From positions 38,866,573 through 38,930,572 of the forward strand of contig NC_054712.1 of the NCBI RefSeq assembly GCF_016097555.1: a stretch of 64,000 nucleotides of DNA, written 5' to 3'. Both the position numbers and the translations under genes were made by a program. Below are positions 25,967 through 50,400 of this stretch, piece by piece. Source of the DNA: Gigantopelta aegis. Lineage: Eukaryota; Mollusca; Gastropoda; Neomphalida; Peltospiridae. Each line of letters starts with the position of its first letter. Position 1 is the stretch's first letter. The notes beneath the pieces were generated by a model. The model did no database searches and had not been told where the DNA came from. It saw nothing but the letters and a program-made list of their open reading frames with translations.

Positions 25967-26481
25967 CTAATCGATCTCTATAACATCGTCTGGATTACCC
26001 AGACTCCCGTGTGCTGCTGACACTGGAATCACCGGTACAGGGTCGTCTTCGATCTCAATAACCTCCCCAGAGTCCATCGCAGCCTCAGTGTGTTGCTGAT
26101 TATTCACTTTGGAAACCGACGGCTCTATCTCGATCACCTCCCCCGAGTCCACCATGATTTTGCTCTGTGGTTTCACTCCTTTCAGATATGTAGGCTCGAT
26201 ATCGATTTCTATGACATCATTGCTGTTGTCACTTTCATCCATCTTGGCCTTTTTCGACAAAGTTGAATCATTATCGCCAGTTTCGTCCACCTTTCTCTTC
26301 TTTCCTGTTGTCTTTTCCTCCGCGGCTGACTCAGTCGGAGTAACATCGTCATCCATCTCCTTTCTTTTGGCTGGTGGTTGTGTGTCTTCGGTTTCTTCGA
26401 GTTTTCTCTTCGTTGGTAACGATTCTTCTTCCGCTTCAACGTCTTCCTCTTCCATTATTACCAAATCATCGTCGTCATCTT
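25967..26481 (-). CDS. UBA2: UBA2 terminal exon 18, acidic tail with VIEI repeats
   Basis: Acceptor atttcag ends at 26482. It encodes 170 residues and the stop: acidic DDDDDLVIM start, three basic clusters, then four VIEI motifs at residues 662-665, 688-691, 713-716 and 739-742. The spacing is 25-26 residues, and the protein ends DDVIEID. Motifs of this kind flanked by acidic residues are typical SUMO-interacting motifs. Confidence 0.95.
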
Positions 26482-29400: not shown

Positions 29401-32400
29401 AATTTGACACAACTGGTCTAAACCAGGGCTTCTAGAAAAAAAAATTAAATCCACTAGGCATGGGATCAGTGATTTTAAAAATTGACTAGCCACGATTAAA
29501 TATTCACTAGCCCTACTTTACTTCAAGTTAATACCATTTTACTAAATAATAGTAATAATTAGATATGTCACCTAAAGAGGGAGAAAGAGCTTAAAAACAC
29601 TAACAATCTGGGTTGGGGTAGTGTCAGGATATTTATATTTACAAAATGGACTTAACTGCAACATTTGACCCCCCCCCCCCCCCCCAAAAAAAATAATTCA
29701 CAAGCCATCTGACATGACAACAGTAGTCATTTACTAGCCCAACATTGAATATCACTAGCCATGGGAGTGGGGCCACCATAATCTAGAAGCCATGTCTGAA
29801 GATACTATGCTTAATAGTTTTAAACCTTTAATTTTTATGGGCTTATCTTTTCATGGTTGTGCTAAAACATACATTTCCTGGGGTACTTAAATTTGTGTTT
29901 CTAAAAGGTAGTCTCATAAATTGGTTTTACATGTATACATATTTTCATTGTGCTCTTAAATTCGTTAACTGCACAAATCCACGAACTGCAAGAAAATTAG
30001 CCTACCACAAACAAAAGTGATTTCACATTAAAATAATTGATAATTTTGTTTTCACATTTGTTTTGCATATCACTTACTAATAGTTACTTTTACAAATAAA
30101 ATAGTGTCTTTATTTACCATCTGTTTCCCCTTCCTCACTGGACACCACGATGCTACCTAGAACAAAACAAAACATTCAACTGTGAATAATGGATTGACAA
30201 AACAAACTGACATGGGACTGATTTTGTCGGATACTGCTACATCTATTCCACTTACTTGTGACAAAAAATCTGGACTTTATTATAGATTAGGGAAATAGGA
30301 AATGTTTTATTTAATGACACACTTAACACATTTTATTTACGGTTATATGGCATCAGACATATGGTTAAGGACCACACAGATATTGAGAGAGGAAATCCGC
30401 TGTTGCCACTTCATGGGCTACTCTTTTCGATTAGCAGCAAGGGATCTTTTATATGCACCATCCCACAGACAGGATAGCACATACCACAGACTTTGATATA
30501 CCAGTCGTGGTGCACTGGCTGGAACGAGAAATAGCCCAATGGGCCCACCGATGGGGATTGATTTATTAGAGATTAATTACATTGTTTTGGGGTGTGCTTA
30601 ACATAGGTGAGTACTTCGAATCAGTAGCCTCCTACTTTGCAATCAGAAATATATTAAATACCCTGACTGAAACAAATTTAACTAGTGATATTGTATGAAA
30701 TTAGGTAAAATATGACCAATATGTCCACTACCATACAATATTTGACATAAGCAAAAAACAAACAAACAGGTTTTTCTTTTTTTCTATGCATATCTAATAC
30801 ATACTGATAGAAAAACACATAAAGGAAGTCATTTAGGAACGAATTAATTAATAATTAATTACTTGAGTAGTTATGTTTGTATAAAATACAGAGATGTAAT
30901 GTCAAGACTAAATGTTAGCACTGTGGGATTAACTGCCAGGCAGTAACAGGGTTAACTTCCTGACACTGTGGATGAGAGTTTTGGTATCACTCAATATTTT
31001 GTTTCTTTTATATGTCCTTTCCAACACGCATAATTTGTTGGTTGTAATTTTTAAATATTCTATCTGTATATATTTACTTTTTGTAAATGTACATTTACCA
31101 CCGTCCCCTCCCCAAAAGCATATTTCATATCCACCCGTAACAAGAGTACCAGTGATGATGATCCTATATGAACTGATAATAAAGATATTCTCCGGAAACG
31201 AAATGTTTATGGACAGACAACACCATACCATAATATTGATAATATGACCCGACAAAGATGGGCGTATAAAAATGCTAAAAATGTTGAATCACATCTAATA
31301 AAATGATGTTTACTCTTTACTAAATATAATATATCAATGAAAGAAAGGAAGGAAGGAATATTTGCTTAACGACACCTCAGCACATCCTAAATTATGGCTC
31401 TTTGGTGTGTAACATATGGCTATATATATATCAATGGAAAAGAAAGAAATGTTTTATTTAAAGACACACTCAACACATTTTATTTACAGTTATATGGCAT
31501 CAGAAATATGGTGAAAGGACCACACAGATAGTGAGAGAGGAAACCCGCTGTCGCCACTTCAGGGGCTACTCTTTTTCGATTAGCAGCAAGGGACCTTTTA
31601 TATGCACTATCCCACAGAAAGGGTAGTACATACCACGGCCTTTGATATACCAGTCATGGTGCAGAAATAGCCCAATGGGGATCGATCCCAGACCGACTGC
31701 GCATCAAGCGAGTGCTTTACCACTGGGCTATGTCCCGCCACCATATATATCACTGGAGAAAGAAAAATAATTTACCAACCTGTTCCTTCAATCTCCACAT
31801 CTGGAGCAACCATGTTCAGTTCACTCTTGAGAATCTGGTGATGGAAATATTAAACTGAACATCAGAACGAAAACAATGCACCAAGTTTATAACAGTATTC
31901 GACTGAATTATTTGATTTAACTTGAATGGTCTTGAAGAAAACGATTATTTTATAGTATTATATGATACAAGTAACTTACTTCCAGTTATATTATGTTAAG
32001 GAGAAAATAACAATTATATTATTGTGAAAACAAAATAATTAAATGAAATTATGTTTGTCAACATTAATCCATTTTCTACTATTTTACTCAATTCTTCACT
32101 AGTTAATTTCTTCTAAGACCTCAAGAGCCAGTTACTACCACAGCATAACAATTCAGCCCCAAAAGGTAGTAACAGGTTTACCTTCTCCTCAAAATACTTG
32201 ACAGTAATCTTGTTGGTGTTGAGAGCGACAGTGACCTCAGGCTTAGAAGAACACACGTAACACTTGGGGTTCGGTTTATCCAATTCACACGGAATCAGCA
32301 ACTTTTTTCTAGGGTTCGGCTGTCTATTTAAGTAAACCTGCAAGCATCAAAAAGTCATTTTATAACTATCTAAGACATTTCAATAAAAGAACTGCTTCAG

Positions 32401-35400
32401 CTTTGCAATAGCAAAACAAAGCAAATAAATAAAAATCTAATAAATATGTGAAAAACAAATACATTAATTAAATAGCCACTGACTCAAGTTCCCGAGATAT
32501 CTATTATTTATGTTCTACATCAAATGTAGTAGGAGCTACAACAAATGCCAATACAACCAGAAAACAATTGGGACTATCAAATTTTTTAATTTAACCAAAA
32601 CATATAGTTTAAGAATGAGTAATTTAATGGTCAGAAAAGCTGTAACAGCCTAAATATTTTACACTGCCAAACAGCCTTAGTCGGTGCCTCTAAGACGACA
32701 CTATAATCAGACACTCACCGCTCTACACTGGTCAATACGGCCGGCTAGGATCTTCAAACCTTCCATGACAAGCAGACCAGCGATTATTGCATTAGTCGTT
32801 GCTATAGCCGGGATGATGTTACCTGCCATGGCTAAAACAAAAACACACACAAAACCCAATTAATAAATGAATTTGGATTCTATCTAAAATACTTTTAACA
32901 TCACATTATTGAATGTTTATTATGTATTCCAAACCATCATGCTGTTTAGATCACTTGTTCCTGATATCATGTAATAATAAAATTTCCCCATAACATTAAT
33001 TACAATTTAACGTCACCCAATTGGTCCAGCTGTACCAATGCAGGTTTGTTAATTTAACGATGAACGTGAAAATAACCTCGTCAGGGAACGTCATAACTGA
33101 TGATGTAACTTTATATTGGTACTGTGTCTTACTGAGCTTTATTGTTTAAGAATAAAAACTCAAAAACTCAAAATCAATATGCTATTACAGGCTTTTAGTG
33201 TTATTAGTGAGCATGTTTCAAATTTAATCATAAGGATTGTCTGTTATTTCTTTTAGTGTTGTTAGTGAGCATGTTTCAAATTTAATCATAAGGATTGTCT
33301 GTTATTTCTTTTAGTGTTGTTAGTGAGCATGTTTCAAATTTAATCATAAGGATTGTCTGTTATTTCTTTTAGTGTTGTTAGTGAGCATGTTTCAAATTTA
33401 ATCATAAGGATTGTCTGTTATTTCTTTTAGTGTTGTTAGTGAGCATGTTTCAAATTTAATCATAAGGATTGTCTGTTATTTCTTTTAGTGTTATTAGTGA
33501 GCATGTTTCAAATTTAATCATAAGAATTGTCTGTTATTTCTTTTAGTGTTGTTAGTATGTTTCAAATTTAATCATAAGGAGTGTCTGTTATTTCTTTTAG
33601 TGTTGTTTGTGAGTATGTTTCAAATTTAATCATAAGGATTGTCTGTTATTTCTTTTAGTGTTGTTAGTGAGCATGTTTCAAATTTAATCATAAGGATTGT
33701 CTGTTATTTCTTTTAGTGTTGTTAGTGAGCATGTTTCAAATTTAATCATAAGGATTGTCTGTTATTTCTTTTAGTGTTGTTAGTGAGTATGTTTCAAATT
33801 TAATCATAAGGATTGTCTGTTATTTCTTTTCCCTTCACTGGGGTACGAATAATAAAAATAAAAAAACATCAGCAAAGTTATAAGTGAACGCCTTTTTTTG
33901 GTTCATACTTTGACATATGAAAAAGAAATATCAGACAATCCTTAATTATAGCGGAAATATACAGTTAACACCACAAAAGAAACACAAATCAAAGTTATGG
34001 TTGAAAATCTTAAATTCTAGAAAATGCTAAAAGGTATACGAACCTGAAATTTTCCTAAATTTCAACACATGTTAAAAACCTTCTGAAAAAATGTTATTTT
34101 ATTTTTTAGCTGAAAATAATATTTGTATTTTTTTGTGTGTACAGTTTAGTTGAAAATGGTCACTTACATTTAATATCGAAGCGAGACTTAAGCGGAATAC
34201 CAAAGATGTGAGCCCTGATGTTGGCGACACACGTCACAAAATTCATGGCCACGTCATCATCCTAATAAAAAAATAATTTCATAGTATTAAAACATCAGTC
34301 TAATAACAAAACAATTTCATATAGTATTAAAACACCATCCTAATAACACAGAACAATTTCACATACTATTAAAACAAAACACATTCTCTAATGCATAAAT
34401 AATGAACAAGTATTCTGAGAATCCTGCTAAAGCAATACATGTCCCCTACTGCATCCAACAGATTTTCTTCTCCTATATTCAGGAAAAAGAGGTAAATTGC
34501 CATGAAGGGTAAACTTAATCTGTAACAGTGTATAACAAAGCTATATACAAAATTTCATTTCAATATCTTGAGGCATTGTAAAACAAATTTCATATATCGT
34601 AAGTTCAAGGGCCATAACTCTGTGCAAAAAGGATACATTGCCATGAAAATCAAACTTGATCTGTAACAGAACATGATAAAGCTATACACCAAATTTCAGC
34701 TCAATATCTTGAGGCATTGCCAAACAAATCCGGAAAACAAATTTGCATATCTCATAAGTTCAAGGGATATAATTCTGTGTTAAAAAGGTAAATCGACATG
34801 AAAGTTACACTTGATCTGTAACAGTACATAATAAAGCTATATATAAAATTTCAATATTTTAAGGTACTGTGACAGACAAGACAGAAATGATAGTCCACTG
34901 GGTTACATCCTCCCCACTCCTCCATGTAATAATACCCCCCCCCCCCCCCAATACTGAAAAATTAAAGTTTGTTTTGTTTAACAACACCATTGATTTATCA
35001 ATCAGGGGCCACTGACTGTCCCATCATTTAGTAATTTTGACAATCTTTAGGAGGAAACCCACTTCGTTTTTCAATTAGTAGCAAGGGATCTTTTAAATGA
35101 ACCATCCCACATTCCACAGAGAGGATAGCACATATCACTGCCTCTGATATACCACTTGCGATACACTGGCTGGAACAAGAAATTTCCCGATGGGCCCCAT
35201 CATCAGGGATCGAACCTAGACCAACCGTGCGTCAGGCGAACTCTTTACCACCAAGTTAAGTCCCACCCATGGGATCTTTTATATGCACCATCCCACAGAC
35301 AGGATAGCACATACCATGGTCTTTGATATACCAGTCGTGGTGCACTGGTTGGGAAGTAGGAAATATTTTATTTATCGACGCACTCAACACATTTTATTTA

Positions 35401-38400
35401 CAGTTATATGGCATCAGACATATCGTAAAGGACCACACAAATATTGAGAGGAAACCTGCTGTCACCACTTCATGGGTTACTCTTTTCGATTAGCAGCAAG
35501 GGATCTTTTATATGCACCATCCCACAGACAGGATAAGACATACCACAGCCTTTGATATACCAGTGCACTGGCCGGAGCAAAAATAGCCCAATGAGCCCAC
35601 TGACGGGGATCGATCCCAGACCGACCACGCATCAAGCGAACGCTTTACCACTGGGCTACGTCCCGCCCACACACTGGTTGGGATGAGAACCTGTAATGAA
35701 GCCACAATACAGTGAACATGGCATTGCACTGTTTACCTTGTCCCAGATGAGCATGCCGCCGTCCCCTTGCTGAAGAAACTGGCTCTTGAGTTCGGCCAGA
35801 CACTTGCTGAACGTACTGCCACACTCCTTCACTGTCCAGATCTGCTGGTCTCTCATGCAGCTCACCTCACCGGCAGTTCCTGAAGAACAGCAGCAGCAGC
35901 AGTGGTAGATAAAGAAAGGAAAATCAGTGTGCTGTCTCTTAATTCATTGTAACACCAGGGCTAGCTATGGCACTGGCACTTGCCAAATTCGCCAATCGTC
36001 AATTTTATTTTAATTTGGTGAAATTATTTCATGTAACAGTTGACAATCTGTGACAAAAATAACTGTATTTCTCCACCTTTTGTTTGTTTAGTTCAATAGT
36101 TCATTTGTCGGAATTTTCTGCTCACCTAGACCTAACCCTTGAAGGTAGGAAGGAAATGTTTTATTTAATGACGCACTCAACACATTTTATTTTACGGTTA
36201 TATGGCTTCAGACACATGGTTACGGACCACACCGATATTTAGAGAGGAAACCCTTTAAAAGTAGACTACCTGTATCCGGCAGTTTGTCCCAATCAAGTGG
36301 CTCCGGTGACCTGCGCTTCTTCCATAGTGTCTCCATTGACAACAAGTACTTGATGTCATCTCGAAATAACTACAAATACAAAATAATAAAACTAACAAAT
36401 ACTTAATGTCATCTCGAAATAACTACAACAAATCACATGCATCCAAACCTTTTTAAAAACTTGAATACATCATAAGAGTTATACTGTAAATAAAAAAGTA
36501 TCCAAACCTCATTAAATATAAGAGTTATACGACTGCAAATCACAAGTATCCAAACCTTATTAAATACTTTAATACATCATAAGAGTTATATGACTGCAAA
36601 TCACAAGTATCCAAACCTTATTAAATACTTTAATGCATCATAAGAGTTACACAACTGTAAATCACAAGTATCCAAATCTTATTAAATACTTTAATACATC
36701 ATAAGAGTTATACGACTGTAAATCACAAGTATCCAAATCTTATTAAATACTTTAATACATCATAAGAGTTACACAACTGTAAATCACAAGTATTCAAATC
36801 TTATTAAATACTTTAATACATCATAAGAGTTATACGACTGTAAATCACAAGTATCCAAACCTTATTAAATACTTTAATACATCATAAGAGCTATATGACT
36901 GTAAATCACAAACATCCAAACCTTATTAAATACTTTAATACATCATAAGAGTTATGCGACTGTAAATAACATGTATCCAAACCTTATTACTTTAATACAT
37001 CATAAGAGTTATGAGACTGTAAATCACAAGTATCCAAACTTTATTAAATACTTTAATACATAATAAGAGTTAAACGACTGTAAATCACAAACATCCAAAC
37101 TTTATTAAATACTTTAATACATCATAAGAGTTATACGACTGTAAATCACAAACATCCAAACCTTATTAAATATTTTCTGTGGATCGTGCCCAGTCTCCAT
37201 AGCCCACGCCCTTGTCGACTTCCTCTCAATACCTCCAACCTTGTCATCCTTGGCACTAGTTTTCAAAGCTGAATCCCCAGCCTCCGCTGAATGAAAACAT
37301 CACAAGAACTTTATATCATTATTTTACTACATATACATGCATGTCATAATCAAAGACATATTGGAGTATTTGGAGCTCCTAGGCAACAAATAATATAGGC
37401 ACTCCCCCACACACACCCCCACCCCCAAGGGGCAGGACGTAGCCCTGTGGTAAAGCATTCGCTTGATGTGCAGTCGGTCTGGGATCTATCCCTGTCAGTG
37501 GACCCATTGGGCTATTTCTTGTTCCAGCCAGTGCTCCACAATTGGTGTAACAAAGGCCGTTGCATGTACTATCCTGTCTGTGGGATGGTGCATATAAAAG
37601 ATGCTGCTAATCGAAAAGAGTAGCCTTCCTTCCTTCTAATGCCCACACACACCATTCATGACTCCAAAACCACAATAAAGAATAGATTCTACTAGGCTAC
37701 TCGGGGAGGGGAGGGTGGGGAGATGAGGCAGATGAATCTGGCATAAAGAGCTAGTAGGTTCTAATTATAAAATGTTGCTGCCCCCAAACTTTTGGCGCCC
37801 TAGGCCTGGGCCAGTTCCGAGAGCTAGTGGATTTGCCGAACCATGCTTTTTTTTTTTCTCACCTGTCAGTTCTGGATCCTCTGTGTCTGGTGACACTTCT
37901 TGGTCTGGGTCCTCCTCTCCAAACAACTGGCTGCAATTATACAAATTTATTACACAGCAGTGGAAGATATTGCTCATGTCATAACAATCACTCAATATTT
38001 AACTAGTGTAATATCGGCGTGACATAGATCACATGCTGACCCAATTCGTAGACAAATAATGTGTAGTAGGTCTTGACATCTGCTTATTTCGGTGTTGCAG
38101 TTTGTTTGTAGTTGTTTTGTAATAAATAAAATACTAAACTAACTTGCCTGTCATACCATTTTCATGAAACTTTTGAACAGTGTTGGTATCTGACTCGCTT
38201 TCGCTCGTCAGATACCAAAACTGTTCACTCATTTCATAAAAAGTATATGATTCTATATGTACACCCCTAGTAACAGTCAGCTAAGTCAGATGCTTCAGAA
38301 AATCAATCCGTCAAAAGTGCTGGGATAACACAACCACTTGCCAAATTCACCAACTGTAAATGTCATTTTAATATGTCCAAATTTATTTTAAATTAGTAAT

Positions 38401-41400
38401 TCTTATTTTAATTTGGCAAATTTAATTAAGTTTTTAAATTGGTAAACTTTAAGTTGATTTGGTAAAATTATGTTTTGTAACAGCATTTTATTTTCAACCC
38501 CCCCACCCCCCACCCTTACACCATCCCTCAGGCTATTGCTAGTTTTTTTAATTTTCAAAATTGATACATTTTCTCCTCACCCAGAGCTAACCCTGCAATG
38601 TTTTGATGGAAACATTATTGTCGTATTGTTCACGACTAACTCCAAAATCTGGAAATCAGCATATTATATATTGTGTTTTATATATAAAGAGTTTTTAATG
38701 ATGTCAGACTCACTTGAACAGATGTTTGGCCCACACCACACAGTGTATCGGTTCGGACGGAGTGTTTCTAATGGTGCAGCCCGGAAATGTTTTCTGGGTG
38801 GGTTTCGGCTGACATTCATAACACTCTGTGACACCCTGAAAACAAGATGGATGTTTTAACACGGACTCAGTCTGTGCTGAAAATTCACAATACTAGCATC
38901 TGATCTGCGTAGAATCTTTACACAACAATGCAGTGTTCGACAAATGTTTGAGAAAGTCTCCAGCCCTCACAGAATCTTTGGCCAGTGCCCTTTATGTCTG
39001 TTAATAGTGTTATACACATCAAGCAATATGTTAGTAGTGACCTCAATCCGATTAAAATTAGCTCTACTGGTCTACCAGTAGATCTAACAGCATTGCGTGG
39101 ACTCCCATGTCTATGTGACATTTCATCTATAAATAACAATTTAAATATCAAACAATTACACTTCGCCTTTTATAGTGTTATTCGGGAGCATACAAATTAT
39201 AAAAATATCGGGTGAGACTATTTATGCAATAGGTGAACTTGTTGGTCATATTTTAACATTAAAAAATAGGGGGAAAAGTGCAGTAATAAACTCTGGATTG
39301 CATACTAGTATAAATAGATTTTATGGCTATACCATGACAGGTTTTTTTTCTTCTTGAAATAAATTTTATATAAAATTTATATTGAAATTAGTTTCAGGCA
39401 TACTTCGTAATTCACCCGAATAATTTTTTCGTATACCCTCGGCATAATCCTAAATGTTTTCAAATTCTTTTCAAATCACTGGCATGATTTTGCAAGTAAG
39501 GTTTTGATTGGTCGTATGAAAGGTCAACTAGACATAAGCTCCAACGGGGTGCTGTTAGATCCACAGGTAATAGTAATTAACCAGTGGAGCTAATTTTAAT
39601 TTGATTGTAGTGACCTTCCAATTCTAGAAGGATCGGTGATAGAAATAAGCAGAAACCTTCACTAGTCCACTGGACAAATATATCCAGAAATCAACTTGTC
39701 CAAATAAATGTGTTATTCAACTACAAAGACCATGTTTTCATTGCTCAAAATTAAACCGTATTGAACATTTTGACTTGTCCACCGGATAACAAGCAAGGTA
39801 CATTTTTGTTGTCCGATCAGTTATTTACTTGTCAGGACAAACAGACAAGCGCTTATTTCAAACGCTGAGTATGGATATGTTGCACAGTGGTACAGTGGTA
39901 ATCTAATGTAACATGGATTGTAGGACTGAAAGATCCCAGATGGATCCAAATGTTGAGTTTTTACCTCATCCCAGCCAATGAACCATGGTATATCAAGGTC
40001 ATATGATTAATGTGCATGTTCAGAACAAGCTGTTGTAGCACACACTGGTATATCAAGGTCATATGATTAATGTGCATGTTCAGAACAAGCTGTTGTAGCA
40101 CACACTGGTATATCAAGGTCATATGATTAATGTGCATGTTCAGAACAAGCTGTTGTAGCACACACACCGGTATATCAAGGTCATATGATTAATGTGCATG
40201 TTCAGAACAAGTTGTTGTAGCACACACTGGTATATCAAGGTCATATGATTAATGTGCATGTTCAGAACAAGCTGTTGTAGCACACACTGGTATATCAAGG
40301 TCATATGATTAATGTGCATGTTCAGAACAAGCTGTTGTAGCACACACACTGGTATATCAAGGTCATATGATTAATGTGCATGTTCAGAACAAGCTGTTGT
40401 AGCACACACACTGGTATATCAAGGTCATATGATTAATGTGCATGTTCAGAACAAGCTGTTGTAGCACACACACCGGTATATCAAGGTCATATGATTAATG
40501 TGCATGTTCAGAACAAGCTGTTGTAGCACACACCGGTATATCAAAGTCATATGATTAATGTGCATGTTCAGAACAAGCTGTTGTAGCACACACTGGTACA
40601 TCAAGGTCATATGATTAATGTGCATGTTCAGAACAAGCTGTTGTAGCACACACACTGGTATATCAAGGTCATATGATTAATGTGCATGTTCAGAACAAGC
40701 TGTTGTAGCACACACTGGTACATCAAGGTCATATGATTAATGTGCATGTTCAGAACAAGCTGTTGTAGCACACACACCAGTATATCAAGGTCATATGATT
40801 AATGTGCATGTTCAGAACAAGCTGTTGTAGCACACACACCAGTATATCAAGGTCATATGATTAATGTGCATGTTCAGAACAAGCTGTTGTAGCACACACA
40901 CACCGGTATATCAAGGTCATATGATTAATGTGCATGTTCAGAACAAGCTGTTGTAACACACACACACCGGTATATCAAGGTCATATGATTAATGTGCATA
41001 TTCAGAACAAGCTGTTGTAGCACACACGGGTATATCAAAGTCATATGATTAATGTGCATGTTCAGAACAAGCTGTTGTAGCACACACACCGGTATATCAA
41101 GGTCATATGATTAATGTGCATGTTCAGAACAAGCTGTTGTAGCACACACCGGTATATCAAAGTCATATGATTAATGTGCATGTTCAGAACAAGCTGTTGT
41201 AGCACACACACCGGTATATCAAGGTCATATGATTAATGTGCATGTTCAGAACAAGCTGTTGTAGCACACACACCGGTATATCAAGGTCATATGATTAATG
41301 TGCATGTTCAGAACAAGCTGTTGTAGCACACACCGGTATATCAAAGTCATATGATTAATGTGCATGTTCAGAACAAGCTGTTGTAGCACACACCGGTACA

Positions 41401-44400
41401 TCAAGGTCATTTGATTAATGTGCATGTTCAGAACAAGCTGTTGTAGCACACACTGGTACATCAAAGGCCATGGTCAATTATACGTGGAAACAGATCAAAT
41501 TTAAACAAACATCTGGACAGACTATTTATTCCTAATGAAGAAGGAATTTATTTATTTAACTAATAGAATATCTCTAAACTTTAATAAAAGATTTTCAAAT
41601 ATCATGTATACCAAATGATTTTGTTTCATATTATAAATAGCAGGGCAATGTTAATTGATTTTATGGACGATAAAAAATTATGTTCGATTCCTGTTAATAT
41701 CCACAGCAATTTTAAAAACCACAGTACTTAAGGAGAGCAACATTTTGTACTAACTTACCTTCTTAATGACTGTGACCTGTCCCAGATAACCCGCGGACCC
41801 ACTCTCGATTAATGGAATGTCTGCCGCCAAACACATCCTGTTCACATGGTTACGAGCAGCTACGGAAACAAAAACATTATGTTAGTTTTAAATAACAGTC
41901 TACATGAATCTCACTGAGGTGAATGAAGAAATAATGTCCATGTAGTGTTACAAAATAATTTTAAATCACAGTGACTCTAAAATAGCTTATTTCCTTTCAT
42001 TATACCAGATTAATTCACAAATAATATGTGAAGATAAATATTTCATCAGTATGTGAAAATTAAATTTTGAAACTAAACACATGACTAATGGCTGTTTTCC
42101 GTGTGTATGGTTTCTGGCTCTGTTTTGGGCACGCAATGTGAAAAATAGATGCATCAAAAATTAAATTATGTAGTTATTAATAGCAATGTTTCCATGTGAG
42201 CGGTCATTTTTTTTTTAAACAGTGCCCACACTGCATCAAAAATCACAAACATGATGGGAAAAGGTCCTAACAAGGAATATAAACAGTTTTATTTTATTTT
42301 ATTTTTTAATTTAACCAACCTTTTGCATAATGGTAATTTATAAGTTATCAGGCCCTAATCCTGCCGGCGAAATAAGTGCTTTATTCAAAAGTCAACTCAA
42401 GTCACCAAGTTATTAGCAGTAGAGAGAAGTCGAAGGTGCCGTAATATTCTGAACCTAATCCAATTTGATAAATGAAATCACTCAACAGACGTCAAGACCC
42501 TGACTTTTTTATTTTCATAGCTCACTTGGCATCTTGTTGCCGTATGTTGGACAGTGTTTTTACTTTGGTGCCAGACTGTATCCTCAAGTAATCCTGAACA
42601 TGCCTATTAACGGAAAATGGTTTCTGCGTACGTGCACTGTAATGTACAATTGATCTGATGCAATGTTTTGCCGTGTTCAATTTATTATCAAACTCAACCA
42701 ACAAATTTTAAAAACTCATGCCAGTTTCTGTTGTGAAGACATTAAATACATGTCGTAGTCTAATGCTGATGTTTTTCAAGTACATCTGTAAACCGGGCTA
42801 TTGTTTTTCAAAGTGACATGTGTCTTGCCGTGTGCTGTGTGTGACCAGTCAAGAATTATTAATCCTCGGCCACATTCATTTCAGTAATATTTTAATTTTA
42901 ACATAACGACACATGATCACCTACTTAATAATATCACATTTTTAATAAAACATACAACTGTTTTGTTTAAATTTGATTACCGGAAGTAGTATTTTATATG
43001 GAAATATTACAATTAGCACAGAGTGTAAAATTCTGAATTTTCCTGATGGAAGGTGGACACTGGCGAAAAGTTACGAAGTCACTTCTACTTTTTCAATTTT
43101 AGATTGGGCTTGAATCATGTAATTGTACAGAAACTCACAGAATACAAATAATACTGCCCTAGTAACGATACAATTTTGATTTAAAAAATTCCAAAGGGTG
43201 TCACACATGTGCTTAAACATCTATTTGATATAAGTATGTTAATTTCTAATGCTTGACCTAACATAATTTTCGGGGCATACTGTTACATAAATACATTGTG
43301 TTACATTAATGGCACTGGATATCAAAACATGACATATAAAGCCATTCATCAAGTTTACTATGCTGAATGCTGGCTGGCTAATTGTATCATGCTCCTATAT
43401 CACGAAGGTTTCGAGCATGTCTATCCCGAGTCCTGTCTCTGGATAGCCAGGGGCTTGACTCGGGTCAGTCGGGACAGATAATTTACTGGGCAATTTTGAC
43501 ATTAATGGTCTAAAAATAAAAAATAATAAGTGTGACAATATGTTGAATGCAAGAACATCTTAGAAGGTAAATCATGTCAAATACAGACACTGATATATAC
43601 TTGGCAATAAAAAGTTAACAGGGCTTTAGATTGCATGTTGTGTCCAAAACAGATATAACCAAAATAATCACGCCCAAATGAAGTACAAACATGCTGACCT
43701 AAAAATATTTCACCTCAAAACCACTTCTGTTCTGGACCAAGCCACTGGCTATCTAGAGACTTGGCCCGTGACGGACATGCCTGAAACCGTAGTGGTATAT
43801 GGGCATGTTAAAAATACTCACTCACTCAAAACCACTAACATGTTAAGTTTAATTAGATTAAAATAACTTGAAACACATTTCTGAATACTGACAACTCTCC
43901 AGCAGCTGTTAATGACAGTACTGAACTAAACCAACCTTCCTGCGCTTAGAAGCCCTAGGATCTAAAATCCAGGGACCTAATTCACTAAACTCTCGCAACT
44001 TTGCAATCTCGCAGTGCTATGCTAAAAGACTTGCAAAGAGGATGCTTTGTCGTCTAGCAGAGCCTAAGAGACCTTTGTGAATTAGGCCCCTGGGACCTAA
44101 TTCACTAAACTCTCGCAACTTTGCGATCTCGCAGTGCAATGCTAAGACTTGCAAAGAGAATGCTTTGTTGTCTAGCAGAGCCTAAGAGAGCTTTGTGAAT
44201 TAGGCCCCTGGTTAATATTAGTTCAACCTAATAGGCAAAGGAGCCAGTTTTTGGTGGGGTATTATTATTAATGATTTCATTTTACCTCTATTATCCAGAG
44301 CATTCATAACCAGGTTAAACTTCTTGAAGAAATCAGCACCATAATCAGGACTGGAATGAAAATGGAATATTTTAATGGAAAACTGTATAAATTAAACATT

Positions 44401-47400: not shown

Positions 47401-50400
47401 TCCACACCCCAACCCCGCAATGTTAGTGTTTTAAGCTCTATCTCCCTCTTTAGGTGACATATCTGATTATTCCTATTTAGTTAAATTGTATTAGCTTAAA
47501 GTAAAGTAGGGCTAGTTAATTTTTAATCATGGCTAGTAAATTTTAAAAATTACTGATCCCCTGGCTAGTGGATTTTATAAAAATTCCAGAAGCCCTGGTA
47601 CTAACTCACACATACCTACAGTTAATATGAGCAATTTTACAGTCGGGAAAATAAAAACATTTCATACATGATAAATATATTTTTATGACATTAATAATTA
47701 TTAACAGATCTGTAAATCACACATACCTACAGTTAATATGAGCAATTTTACAGTCGGGAAAAAAAAAAAATTCATACATGATAAATATATTTTTATGACA
47801 TTGATAATTATTAACAGATCTGTAAAAAAGAAAAAAACAGAGAAAAATGTGAACATTATCTACCATTGCAAATAATTATAACATATTTAACATTCCAGAA
47901 TGAAGTTACCAAAATCTACATTCTATTAGTATTACATTACAGTAGATGTTATACGATTGGAAAATAAACTCACCTGTGCTTTCGCTTTGCCAACATGTTC
48001 TTTTCTGAAAAGAAACTGACGATTCAGGTTGCTTACATCAATTGTGTCAAGATCAATCTGAAATAAAAGAAGTCCATTTTAACATACGGTGTAAAAACCC
48101 CAGTGAAAGTAGGTTTTCATTTTTTTTTTTAAGAAGTGACTAAGTCCATAATTTAACTAAATATTTCAAATGAGAATCCCACATAACAATAACTTATTCA
48201 GTGTTGCTGATAGGAAGGAAATGTTTTTATTTAACAACACACCCAACACATTTTATTTATGGTTATATGACGTCAGACATATGGTTAAGGACCACACAGA
48301 TATATAGACAGAGGAAACCCGCTGTCGCCACATGGGCTACTCTTTTCAATTAGCAGCAAGGGATCTTTTATATGCACCATCCCACAGATAGAATAATACA
48401 TACCACATGTGTTGCTGATAGTTGCATCAATAGGTGTTGATCTCAAAATTAAAATTAAAATTAAAATTAAAATATTGTTAATGTCCTTAACTGTGATATG
48501 TTTTAACTCTGTTTGGTTTGTTTTCTTATGCACTGTTCGCACAATCAACATCCTATTTCTTGTTGTCTGCTTGTCGTTCGTATGTGCTTTGGGAACAGTT
48601 TGGGAACATTTTCATCAATAATAAAATTCACACTTGTAAGTATCTAAATTTGTACAAAACTTTACAAACTCCTAAAACCATTAATTTTACTACCGGGCAG
48701 GGGTGCAGAAATTGAAATATTTCACTAGCCCTCTGGGCCAGAACCAACTAAAATGTACTAGCCCGCCAGTATTTCTACTAGTTTGCCAGCCCATAGATCA
48801 AAATATACTCTTCAAAAGAAGAAACGCAAAACCACATTGTCGTAACATTTGGAGAATTGATTTAATTATTGAATGGTGAGTCCGATAATTACCAAATGTT
48901 GCAGGATTGTTCACCATTCACTCTAGTCCATTGTGAGTAAGTGATAGGACACACCACCAAGGTCAAGGTCATCTGGAGTCAATACCGGGTGTGGCCTCCG
49001 CGTGTGTTGACAACTGCCTGGCACCGCCTGCCCATTGAAGCAACCAGAGTACGGATGACGTCCCGGGGAATGGTGGCCCACTCGGCCTGCAAGGCTGCTG
49101 CCAGCTCGGGCAGGGTCTGGGGCTGTGGTTGTCGCTGTCGGAGGCGTCGGTCCAACTCGTCCCATAGATGCTCAATTGGGTTCAAATCCGGTGATATCGA
49201 TGGCCAAGGACATTAATGTTGTTGTTCTGTAGGAAAGCCGTTGTGAGACGTGCTGTGTGAGGCCTGGCGTTGTCATGTTGGAACACTGCGTTGGCGTTGG
49301 CCATAACTGGAACGATGTGTGGCCGGAGGATCTGGTAAATGTAGCCCTGTGCATTCAGGTTGCCCTGCACGTGGACCAGGTCAGTTCTGCCAGTGTGTGA
49401 GATGGCTGCCCACACCATGACACTACCCCCGCCGAATCTGTCCACTTCCTGCACGCAGTTTGCTGCATAACGTTCACCACGACGCCTATACACGCGACAT
49501 CTTCCATCATGACGTCGGAGCAGAAATCGGGACTCGTCACTGAATCACACCTGTCTCCATCGCAGTTGAGGCCATTGTCGATGAATCTGGCACCACTGCA
49601 GTCGGAGTCGACGGTGTTGTGGTGTTAAGATGACACCTCGAACTGGACGTCTGGCACGAATTCCTACCTCACGTAGGCGGTTCCGTACGGTCTGGTCGGA
49701 TATCCTGCGCAAACCTGGTATTGCTGCGGCTGTGGAGGTGGCAGTAGTCAATCGTTCCCGAAGGTGGCGTACCCGGATGTAGCGGTCCTGCCCGGGGGTA
49801 GTGACCCGTGGTCGACCGGATCTAGGGAGGTCACGTGTTGATCCATGTTGCTGGTAACGGTCCCACAGTCTGGAGATGGTGCTTGGGGACACATGGAATG
49901 CCCTGGCAACGGCCGTTCTGGATTCGCCTGCGTCTAGTCGGCCGATGGCATTGTTTCTCTGCGGTTCACTGAGACGTGGCATGTCCTGGATTGTCAACTG
50001 TCGGCCAGATACAGAGGCCAGGCAAGCGAACACCCTGCACTTTTATACTGTCGGTGTTCATGTTGCACGTGCAGACAACGCACGTGCAGTGGTGACATGG
50101 TTTACACGTGGCTGCGTTTTTGCGAATATTCACATTTTGGAACTTTATTGTACAGTAGCTGCGTTTTATCGAATGTAACCGTGGGAATGTGTTTGGGACA
50201 TGCAATAACCTTATATTCACAAAGCATGAACCGGTAGGAAACATAAAATCGGAGTTATAACCCATTTGTACCCTTTTGCGTCTCTTTTTTTGAAGAGTAT
50301 ATTATTGTTTAACAATACTACAATATACACTTAAAATGATAGATATAAATTTGACAAAAACATTATTAATAACACTTGGTTGGCCAAGTGATCACATGGC

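What the first reader, a model, noticed from the sequence alone, without database searches (positions are those of the whole stretch)
36370..37161. UBA2 intron 8 made almost entirely of copies of its own splice edges
About 12 units of 60 bp run into exon 8, each carrying the exon 8 end and its donor (reverse of ccaaaccttattaaata). At the other end the exon 9 acceptor plus 27 exon bases is duplicated. The intron therefore offers many equivalent donors with a weak gtttgg, all preceded by the same exon-like bases.
Basis: seen in the sequence. Interest (0 to 1): 0.7.

Follow-up and report, generated by a model that had tools for sequence, protein, structure and literature searches.

The report
Intron built from copied splice sites
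In this animal's UBA2 gene one whole intron is a short tandem array that copies the end of the exon before it, with its splice signal, and similar arrays sit at exon edges of other genes in the same genome, so the gene must pick the right splice site out of many near-identical ones.

Summary
Window 36370-37161 is exactly intron 8 of a UBA2 gene on the minus strand. It consists of 13 units of about 61 bp that repeat, with changes, about the last 11 exon-8 bases and the donor, then a copy of the exon-9 acceptor with 29 exon bases. Corrections: 3 of the 12 intronic copies have lost GT, 2 are weakened, 7 pair with U1 as well as the real donor. Any downstream donor reads into a stop after 45 nt. 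This is a "mirage", the minisatellite across an exon-intron boundary named in amphioxus, and it resembles the human IFI6 minisatellite that supplies extra donors. It is not alone: in 120 sampled kinase and myosin exons of the same genome, arrays copied the donor edge in 6 and the acceptor edge in 2 clear cases, and UBA2 exon 11 has a small acceptor-edge array. Some arrays keep 4-8 downstream donors as strong as the real one. Best reading: a passive minisatellite seeded at the junction, spliced from the exon-proximal donor. Splicing was not testable. New here: the kind in a probably molluscan genome, and its frequency (8 of 120 sampled exons).

The parts
37162..37286 (-). UBA2 exon 8, ending ...PQKIFNK, AATAAG at its 3' edge
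   Evidence: translation and alignment to human UBA2; tblastn E 3.5e-5 for this exon; one search lists its start one base off
36370..37161 (-). intron 8 (792 nt), real donor AAG|gtttgg at 37161, real acceptor tttgtag| ending at 36370
   Evidence: exon map with in-frame phase-0 junction IFNK|LFRDD
36459..37171 (-). twelve array units; unit 1 contains the real exon edge and donor, units 2-12 are intronic copies
36423..36458 (-). degenerate 13th unit: donor copy followed directly by a decoy acceptor (gatttgttgtag|)
36394..36422 (-). copy of the first 29 bases of exon 9 (2 mismatches) behind the decoy acceptor
   Evidence: tblastn also reads [10 protein letters not shown] here
36270..36369 (-). 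UBA2 exon 9
34258..34376 (-). small acceptor-edge array at UBA2 exon 11: period 40, about 3 copies, units contain a TTATTAG|GATG-like acceptor; overlaps the exon by 4 nt

Best explanation
Intron 8 of UBA2 is a 'mirage': a minisatellite whose seed duplication spanned the exon 8/intron 8 junction and then grew into the intron by slippage or unequal exchange, with a second, two-copy duplication at the exon 9 acceptor. The copies are passive. The spliceosome normally uses the exon-proximal donor and the exon-9-proximal acceptor, and the decoys are spliced out with the intron. Slips onto a decoy donor give a premature stop. Shown: the anatomy, the copying of exon edges, the predicted U1 pairing, the in-frame stop, and recurrence elsewhere in the genome. 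Inferred: the direction exon to array, the growth mechanism, and the splice choice.
For: Exon 8 ends in a stretch conserved with human UBA2 (human VKLFTKLFKDDI, here QKIFNKLFRDDI), so the exon edge is the likely source and the array the copy. A diverged second UBA2-like locus on contig C895 has an intron at the same phase-0 place, 54 nt long, and TRF lists no array in the 3 kb fetched there, so the intron can exist without the array. The array matched one place in the genome (that search skips very common words), so it is probably not a dispersed satellite. Units differ by 2-16% and some have donor-killing changes, as expected of idle copies. The same anatomy recurs: 6 of 120 sampled exons at the donor edge (L020, L022, L037, L040, L077, L086) and 2 of 120 at the acceptor edge (L114, L117). 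In amphioxus such structures are reported not to disturb splicing (passages of PMC3087553 and PMC3902484).
Against: No transcript data exist here, so splice choice is untested. In the human IFI6 case downstream units are used as donors (passage of PMC4526556). No second haplotype or relative was available to show growth or shrinkage. The C895 locus has a stop in its exon 8 and may be a pseudogene or another organism.
Confidence: 0.77

Rival explanations
1. The array is a splicing regulator: several unit donors are used, most products carry the early stop and are destroyed, and array length tunes UBA2 output, as the IFI6 minisatellite supplies used alternative donors.
For: 7 of 12 copies equal the real donor in predicted U1 pairing and the real donor is weak; every downstream donor lies behind the stop at +45 nt; IFI6 precedent.
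Against: No sign that copies are maintained: 3 lost GT and 2 lost the -1 G. Similar arrays occur in unrelated kinase and myosin genes, which fits a mutational habit of the genome better than a UBA2 device. Amphioxus RT-PCR is reported as normal splicing.
Confidence: 0.13
2. The founding duplication spanned the whole exon8-intron-exon9 junction, so each unit is a decayed exon-9 start + exon-8 end + mini-intron, and the intron is a nested array of complete junctions.
For: Unit 13 puts a real-looking acceptor and exon-9 copy where other units have TTTACAG and ATGATGTATTAAAGTATTT; an anchored alignment of the first 26 bases of the exon-9 copy is reached by 42 of 5000 shuffles, and that of the 53-base block by 10 of 1023 AT-matched window segments ending in AG.
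Against: The anchor was chosen after seeing the sequence. Unanchored local alignments are not above shuffles, 244 of 5000 shuffles reach the 53-base score, and the score of the true exon 9 start is reached by 329 of 5000.
Confidence: 0.15
3. A pre-existing satellite or mobile array landed next to exon 8 and its edge happens to resemble the exon end.
For: The L022 unit aligns with a unit of another array of the window (39987-41453; score 81 against at most 30 in 500 shuffles), and that unit recurs in scattered genome places, so dispersed sequence does enter local arrays.
Against: The UBA2 array matched one place in the genome and the copied edge belongs to a conserved exon.
Confidence: 0.05
4. 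Assembly artefact.
For: Short tandem arrays are misassembled easily (general knowledge; PMC3087553 reports one amphioxus mirage as aberrantly assembled).
Against: Unit-to-unit divergence of 2-16%, precise register with exon edges, recurrence at independent loci.
Confidence: 0.02

Closest known systems
'Mirage' minisatellites of amphioxus (Adh3, globins BflGb6 and BflGb9, PGBD5, troponin C)
   Same: Minisatellite-like tandem duplication of an exon-intron boundary, 5' or 3', units of 10-160 bp, splice signals in many but not all copies (passages of PMC3087553; of PMC3902484).
   Different: Here a genome that is most likely molluscan; both edges of one intron are copied and the copies fill the whole intron. 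Normal splicing and length differences between alleles are reported there and untested here.
Minisatellite of human IFI6 (6-16/G1P3), Turri et al. 1995
   Same: A minisatellite that provides multiple splice donors in a transcript (title in reference lists; the original is not held). That it begins at the exon's donor is recalled.
   Different: There two downstream units are used as donors, giving three mRNA species (passage of PMC4526556); here units are about 61 bp, hold an in-frame stop, and use is unknown.
[quoted passage not shown] AGGT model)
   Same: A tandem duplication across an intron-exon boundary copies splice signals (abstract of PMC4974935).
   Different: There a new intron arises; here the intron position is shared with the second UBA2-like locus, so no new intron is indicated.

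Membership tests
mirage minisatellite | tandem repeats that span an exon-intron boundary | tested here: met
   array 36518-37176 runs 15 nt into exon 8; exon edge recurs in the units
mirage minisatellite | minisatellite-sized units (10-160 bp in the published cases) | tested here: met
   period 61; published sizes
mirage minisatellite | many but not all units keep splice signals | tested here: met
   9 of 12 intronic copies keep GT
mirage minisatellite | regular splicing is not disturbed | not testable with these tools
   no transcripts available
mirage minisatellite | length instability between alleles or somatically | not testable with these tools
   one assembly only
IFI6-type donor minisatellite | downstream repeat donors are actually used | not testable with these tools
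   no transcripts available
intron gain by tandem duplication | the intron is new at this position | tested here: not met
   intron of 54 nt at the same phase-0 place in the C895 UBA2-like locus; caveat: origin of that contig unknown, no other species available

The most novel reading that the evidence does not exclude
This genome has an active mutational process that seeds minisatellites preferentially at exon-intron junctions, above all at donors, for instance through transcription- or RNA-linked breaks at the 5' splice site, so that a sizeable share of its introns is built from copies of their own splice edges.
Probability: 0.22. Interest if true: 0.78.

Novelty: new member of a known kind. 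Interest (0 to 1): 0.5.

Why it matters
The mirages I found in print were described gene by gene in amphioxus. If several percent of exons in a probably molluscan genome carry one (8 of 120 sampled), there would be a large set of natural tests of how the spliceosome chooses among equal donors in a row, and a direct way to find what seeds minisatellites at splice junctions. L040 (8 of 8 downstream donors as strong as the real one), L077 (5 of 5) and L086 (4 of 4; all) are especially clean cases.

Tried and rejected
Tried without result: the paper on the IFI6 minisatellite is not held; paper searches for mollusc or gastropod cases gave nothing relevant in the listings and passages seen, nor did wider wording. 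Considered and set aside: selection against decoy donors. The GT losses in units 7-9 are adjacent and the AAA changes in units 2-3 are adjacent, so each is probably one event that spread; two events are too few. L118 was dropped from the donor count after reading because its units hold no exon bases, and L070 was left out of the clear acceptor count as doubtful. The myosin gene on C1 shows two more donor-edge arrays outside the matched exons (L065/L058 and L058/L037); they are not counted. Junction counts for L022 and L058 are incomplete or shifted by one base and are not used.

Full report
What was checked. The stretch 36370-37161 lies in a UBA2 gene on the minus strand. I located 18 exons by translation and alignment to human SUMO-activating enzyme subunit 2 (best E 1.2e-142), from the ATG at 53092 down to the end of the frame at 25970 (a short exon near 31849, [10 protein letters not shown]). 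The splice edges of that short exon and the start of the last exon were not fixed. Exon 8 ends ...PQKIFNK at 37162 and exon 9 starts [10 protein letters not shown] at 36369, phase 0. The finding's coordinates are exactly the 792-nt intron between them.

Anatomy. On the coding strand the unit reads ATTTAATAAG|GTTTGGATACTTGTGATTTACAGTCGTATAACTCTTATGATGTATTAAAGT. Unit 1 contains the true exon end and donor; units 2-12 follow at spacings of 48-61, mostly 61. Unit 13 is degenerate and passes into a decoy acceptor and a 29-base copy of the exon 9 start with two mismatches, both at synonymous third positions of exon 9. Then come 24 more intron bases, ending in the true acceptor. TRF scores the array 1080, with 91% matches. 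An 18-base junction probe hits 15 times in the window against 0.26 expected, 13 of them here. In the whole genome the stretch matched one place, with the tool's caveat that it skips very common words.

Donor quality. With the 5' end of U1 (recalled) and ViennaRNA, the real donor scores -5.4; the 16 UBA2 donors scored range from -4.4 to -12.2 and three are weaker. Of the 12 intronic copies 9 keep GT and 7 equal or exceed the real donor; 3 read AAG|at and 2 read AAA|gt. Reading on from exon 8 past its donor reaches a stop after 45 nt, so any downstream donor yields a truncated product. The decoy acceptor would add 53 nt and shift the frame.

Origin. The exon edge is the likely source, because it encodes a conserved stretch. 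A second, diverged UBA2-like locus on contig C895 has a 54-nt intron at the same phase-0 position. TRF listed no array in the 3 kb fetched there. That locus has a stop in exon 8 and short introns; whether it is a pseudogene, a paralogue or foreign DNA is open. It still shows that the intron does not depend on the array. Whether units also include a decayed exon 9 start is suggestive only: 42 of 5000 shuffles and 10 of 1023 AT-matched segments reach the anchored scores, but 244 of 5000 shuffles reach the 53-base score, 329 of 5000 reach that of the true exon 9, and unanchored alignments are ordinary.

Is it alone? I sampled exons chosen by family match, not by repeats: the 30 best kinase matches, the 30 best myosin matches, and 60 further kinase and myosin matches picked by hand from the tables (no stops inside, on contigs C1-C15, ends inside the domain). 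That makes 120 exons, 103 of them on C1-C15; several come from the same gene. TRF arrays that start inside the exon match were then read by eye. Donor edge copied: 6 of 120: L020 (..CHIRIGDFG|gtaagt), L022 (..GVICYVL|gtaagt), L037 (..HYHYLVQ|gtaaat), L040 (..CIDLIER|gtgagt), L077 (..IDMAAQ|gtaagt), L086 (..RLSNTE|gtaggt). Acceptor edge copied: 2 of 120 clear (L114, L117), 1 doubtful (L070). One overlap was dropped (L118). All 8 clear cases lie on C1-C15: 8 of 103, 7.8%, 95% interval 3.4-14.7%, an interval that treats exons as independent. The idea arose on seeing L022 in the kinase set; the 90 exons of the other sets give 4 donor and 2 acceptor cases. Many matches do not end at an intron, so the rates are likely lower bounds. 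No TRF array of period 15 or more and 2.5 or more copies lay wholly inside or across an exon match.

Are donors favoured? In the 43 C1-C15 loci with 1500-nt flanks, 4 of 19 donor-side arrays have their near edge 1-60 nt inside the exon match against 0.73 expected if uniform (p 0.005), and 0 of 13 acceptor-side arrays against 0.5. This set includes the discovery locus, and the short-flank set gives acceptor cases too (3 overlaps on each side). I take it as a hint, not proof. UBA2 itself has a second, small case at the exon 11 acceptor (34258-34376), and one myosin gene on C1 has three introns with donor-edge arrays, two of them not in the count.

What the most uniform arrays say. L040, L077 and L086 keep 8 of 8, 5 of 5 and 4 of 4 downstream donors as strong as the real one. 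In 7 of 8 arrays tested the read-through meets an in-frame stop within 1-81 nt; L086, with a 60-bp unit, stays open over the fetched stretch. If the genes work, the exon-proximal donor must win often enough, or losses are tolerated.

Known kinds. Seen in passages only: PMC3087553 describes 'mirages', minisatellite-like duplications of 5' or 3' intron-exon boundaries in amphioxus, with regular splicing and unstable length; PMC3902484 adds PGBD5 and troponin C. The paper cited for the name (Canestro 2002) was seen as a reference only. PMC4526556 states that human IFI6 uses two downstream repeat units as donors, citing Turri 1995. The potato case of intron gain was seen as abstract. By the features I could test, the UBA2 array is a mirage.

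Host. The genome has 1.149 Gb in 5216 contigs and molluscan haemocyanin domains, though on small contigs. Size and the run of very long contigs up to C15 agree with Gigantopelta aegis (1.15 Gb, 15 pseudo-chromosomes, host DNA read with PacBio; passages of PMC7895826). That name is inference. Arrays of five or more copies make up 8.2% of the window and 4.3% of a 140-kb sample, so this genome makes minisatellites freely.

Verdict. Observation confirmed with corrections; interpretation partly supported. New member of a known kind, more interesting for its frequency in this genome than for UBA2 alone. That I found no report of mirages in molluscs rests only on the searches.

Noticed in passing
L126:906-2406 (G000:C895:106600-109600): A second, diverged UBA2-like locus with short introns (54 nt at the place of intron 8) and a stop in its exon 8; pseudogene, paralogue or foreign DNA in the assembly.
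   Followed up: partly
L022:1848-3210 and window:39987-41453: The 137-bp unit of the L022 kinase array aligns with the unit of the window array at 39987-41453 (score 81, at most 30 in 500 shuffles), and that unit also matches scattered places on other contigs: a dispersed sequence that becomes part of local arrays.
   Followed up: partly
L065:3870-5000, L058 and L037 (G000:C1:27045846-27057234): Three introns of what looks like one myosin gene hold arrays copying the upstream exon's end and donor (NLFIRYMENQIY|gtcagt, EANPIMEG|gtgagt, HYHYLVQ|gtaaat).
   Followed up: partly
L086:417-759 (read on the gene's strand): A tyrosine-kinase exon edge repeated with a 60-bp period stays open in frame through all fetched units, so downstream donors could insert 20 residues per unit.
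   Followed up: partly
window:27235-28355 and 48926-50042: Two copies of a transposase-like reading frame (DDE, Tc1/mariner-like by eye), one open over more than 350 residues.
   Followed up: no
window:25548-25934: A 21-bp array of about 16 copies lies just behind the UBA2 stop codon, probably in the 3' untranslated region.
   Followed up: no
L046:8-1496 and L064:5-1491: Long arrays run up to within 4-9 nt of a myosin exon match on the acceptor side; in L046 the pyrimidine-rich stretch is copied but not the AG.
   Followed up: partly
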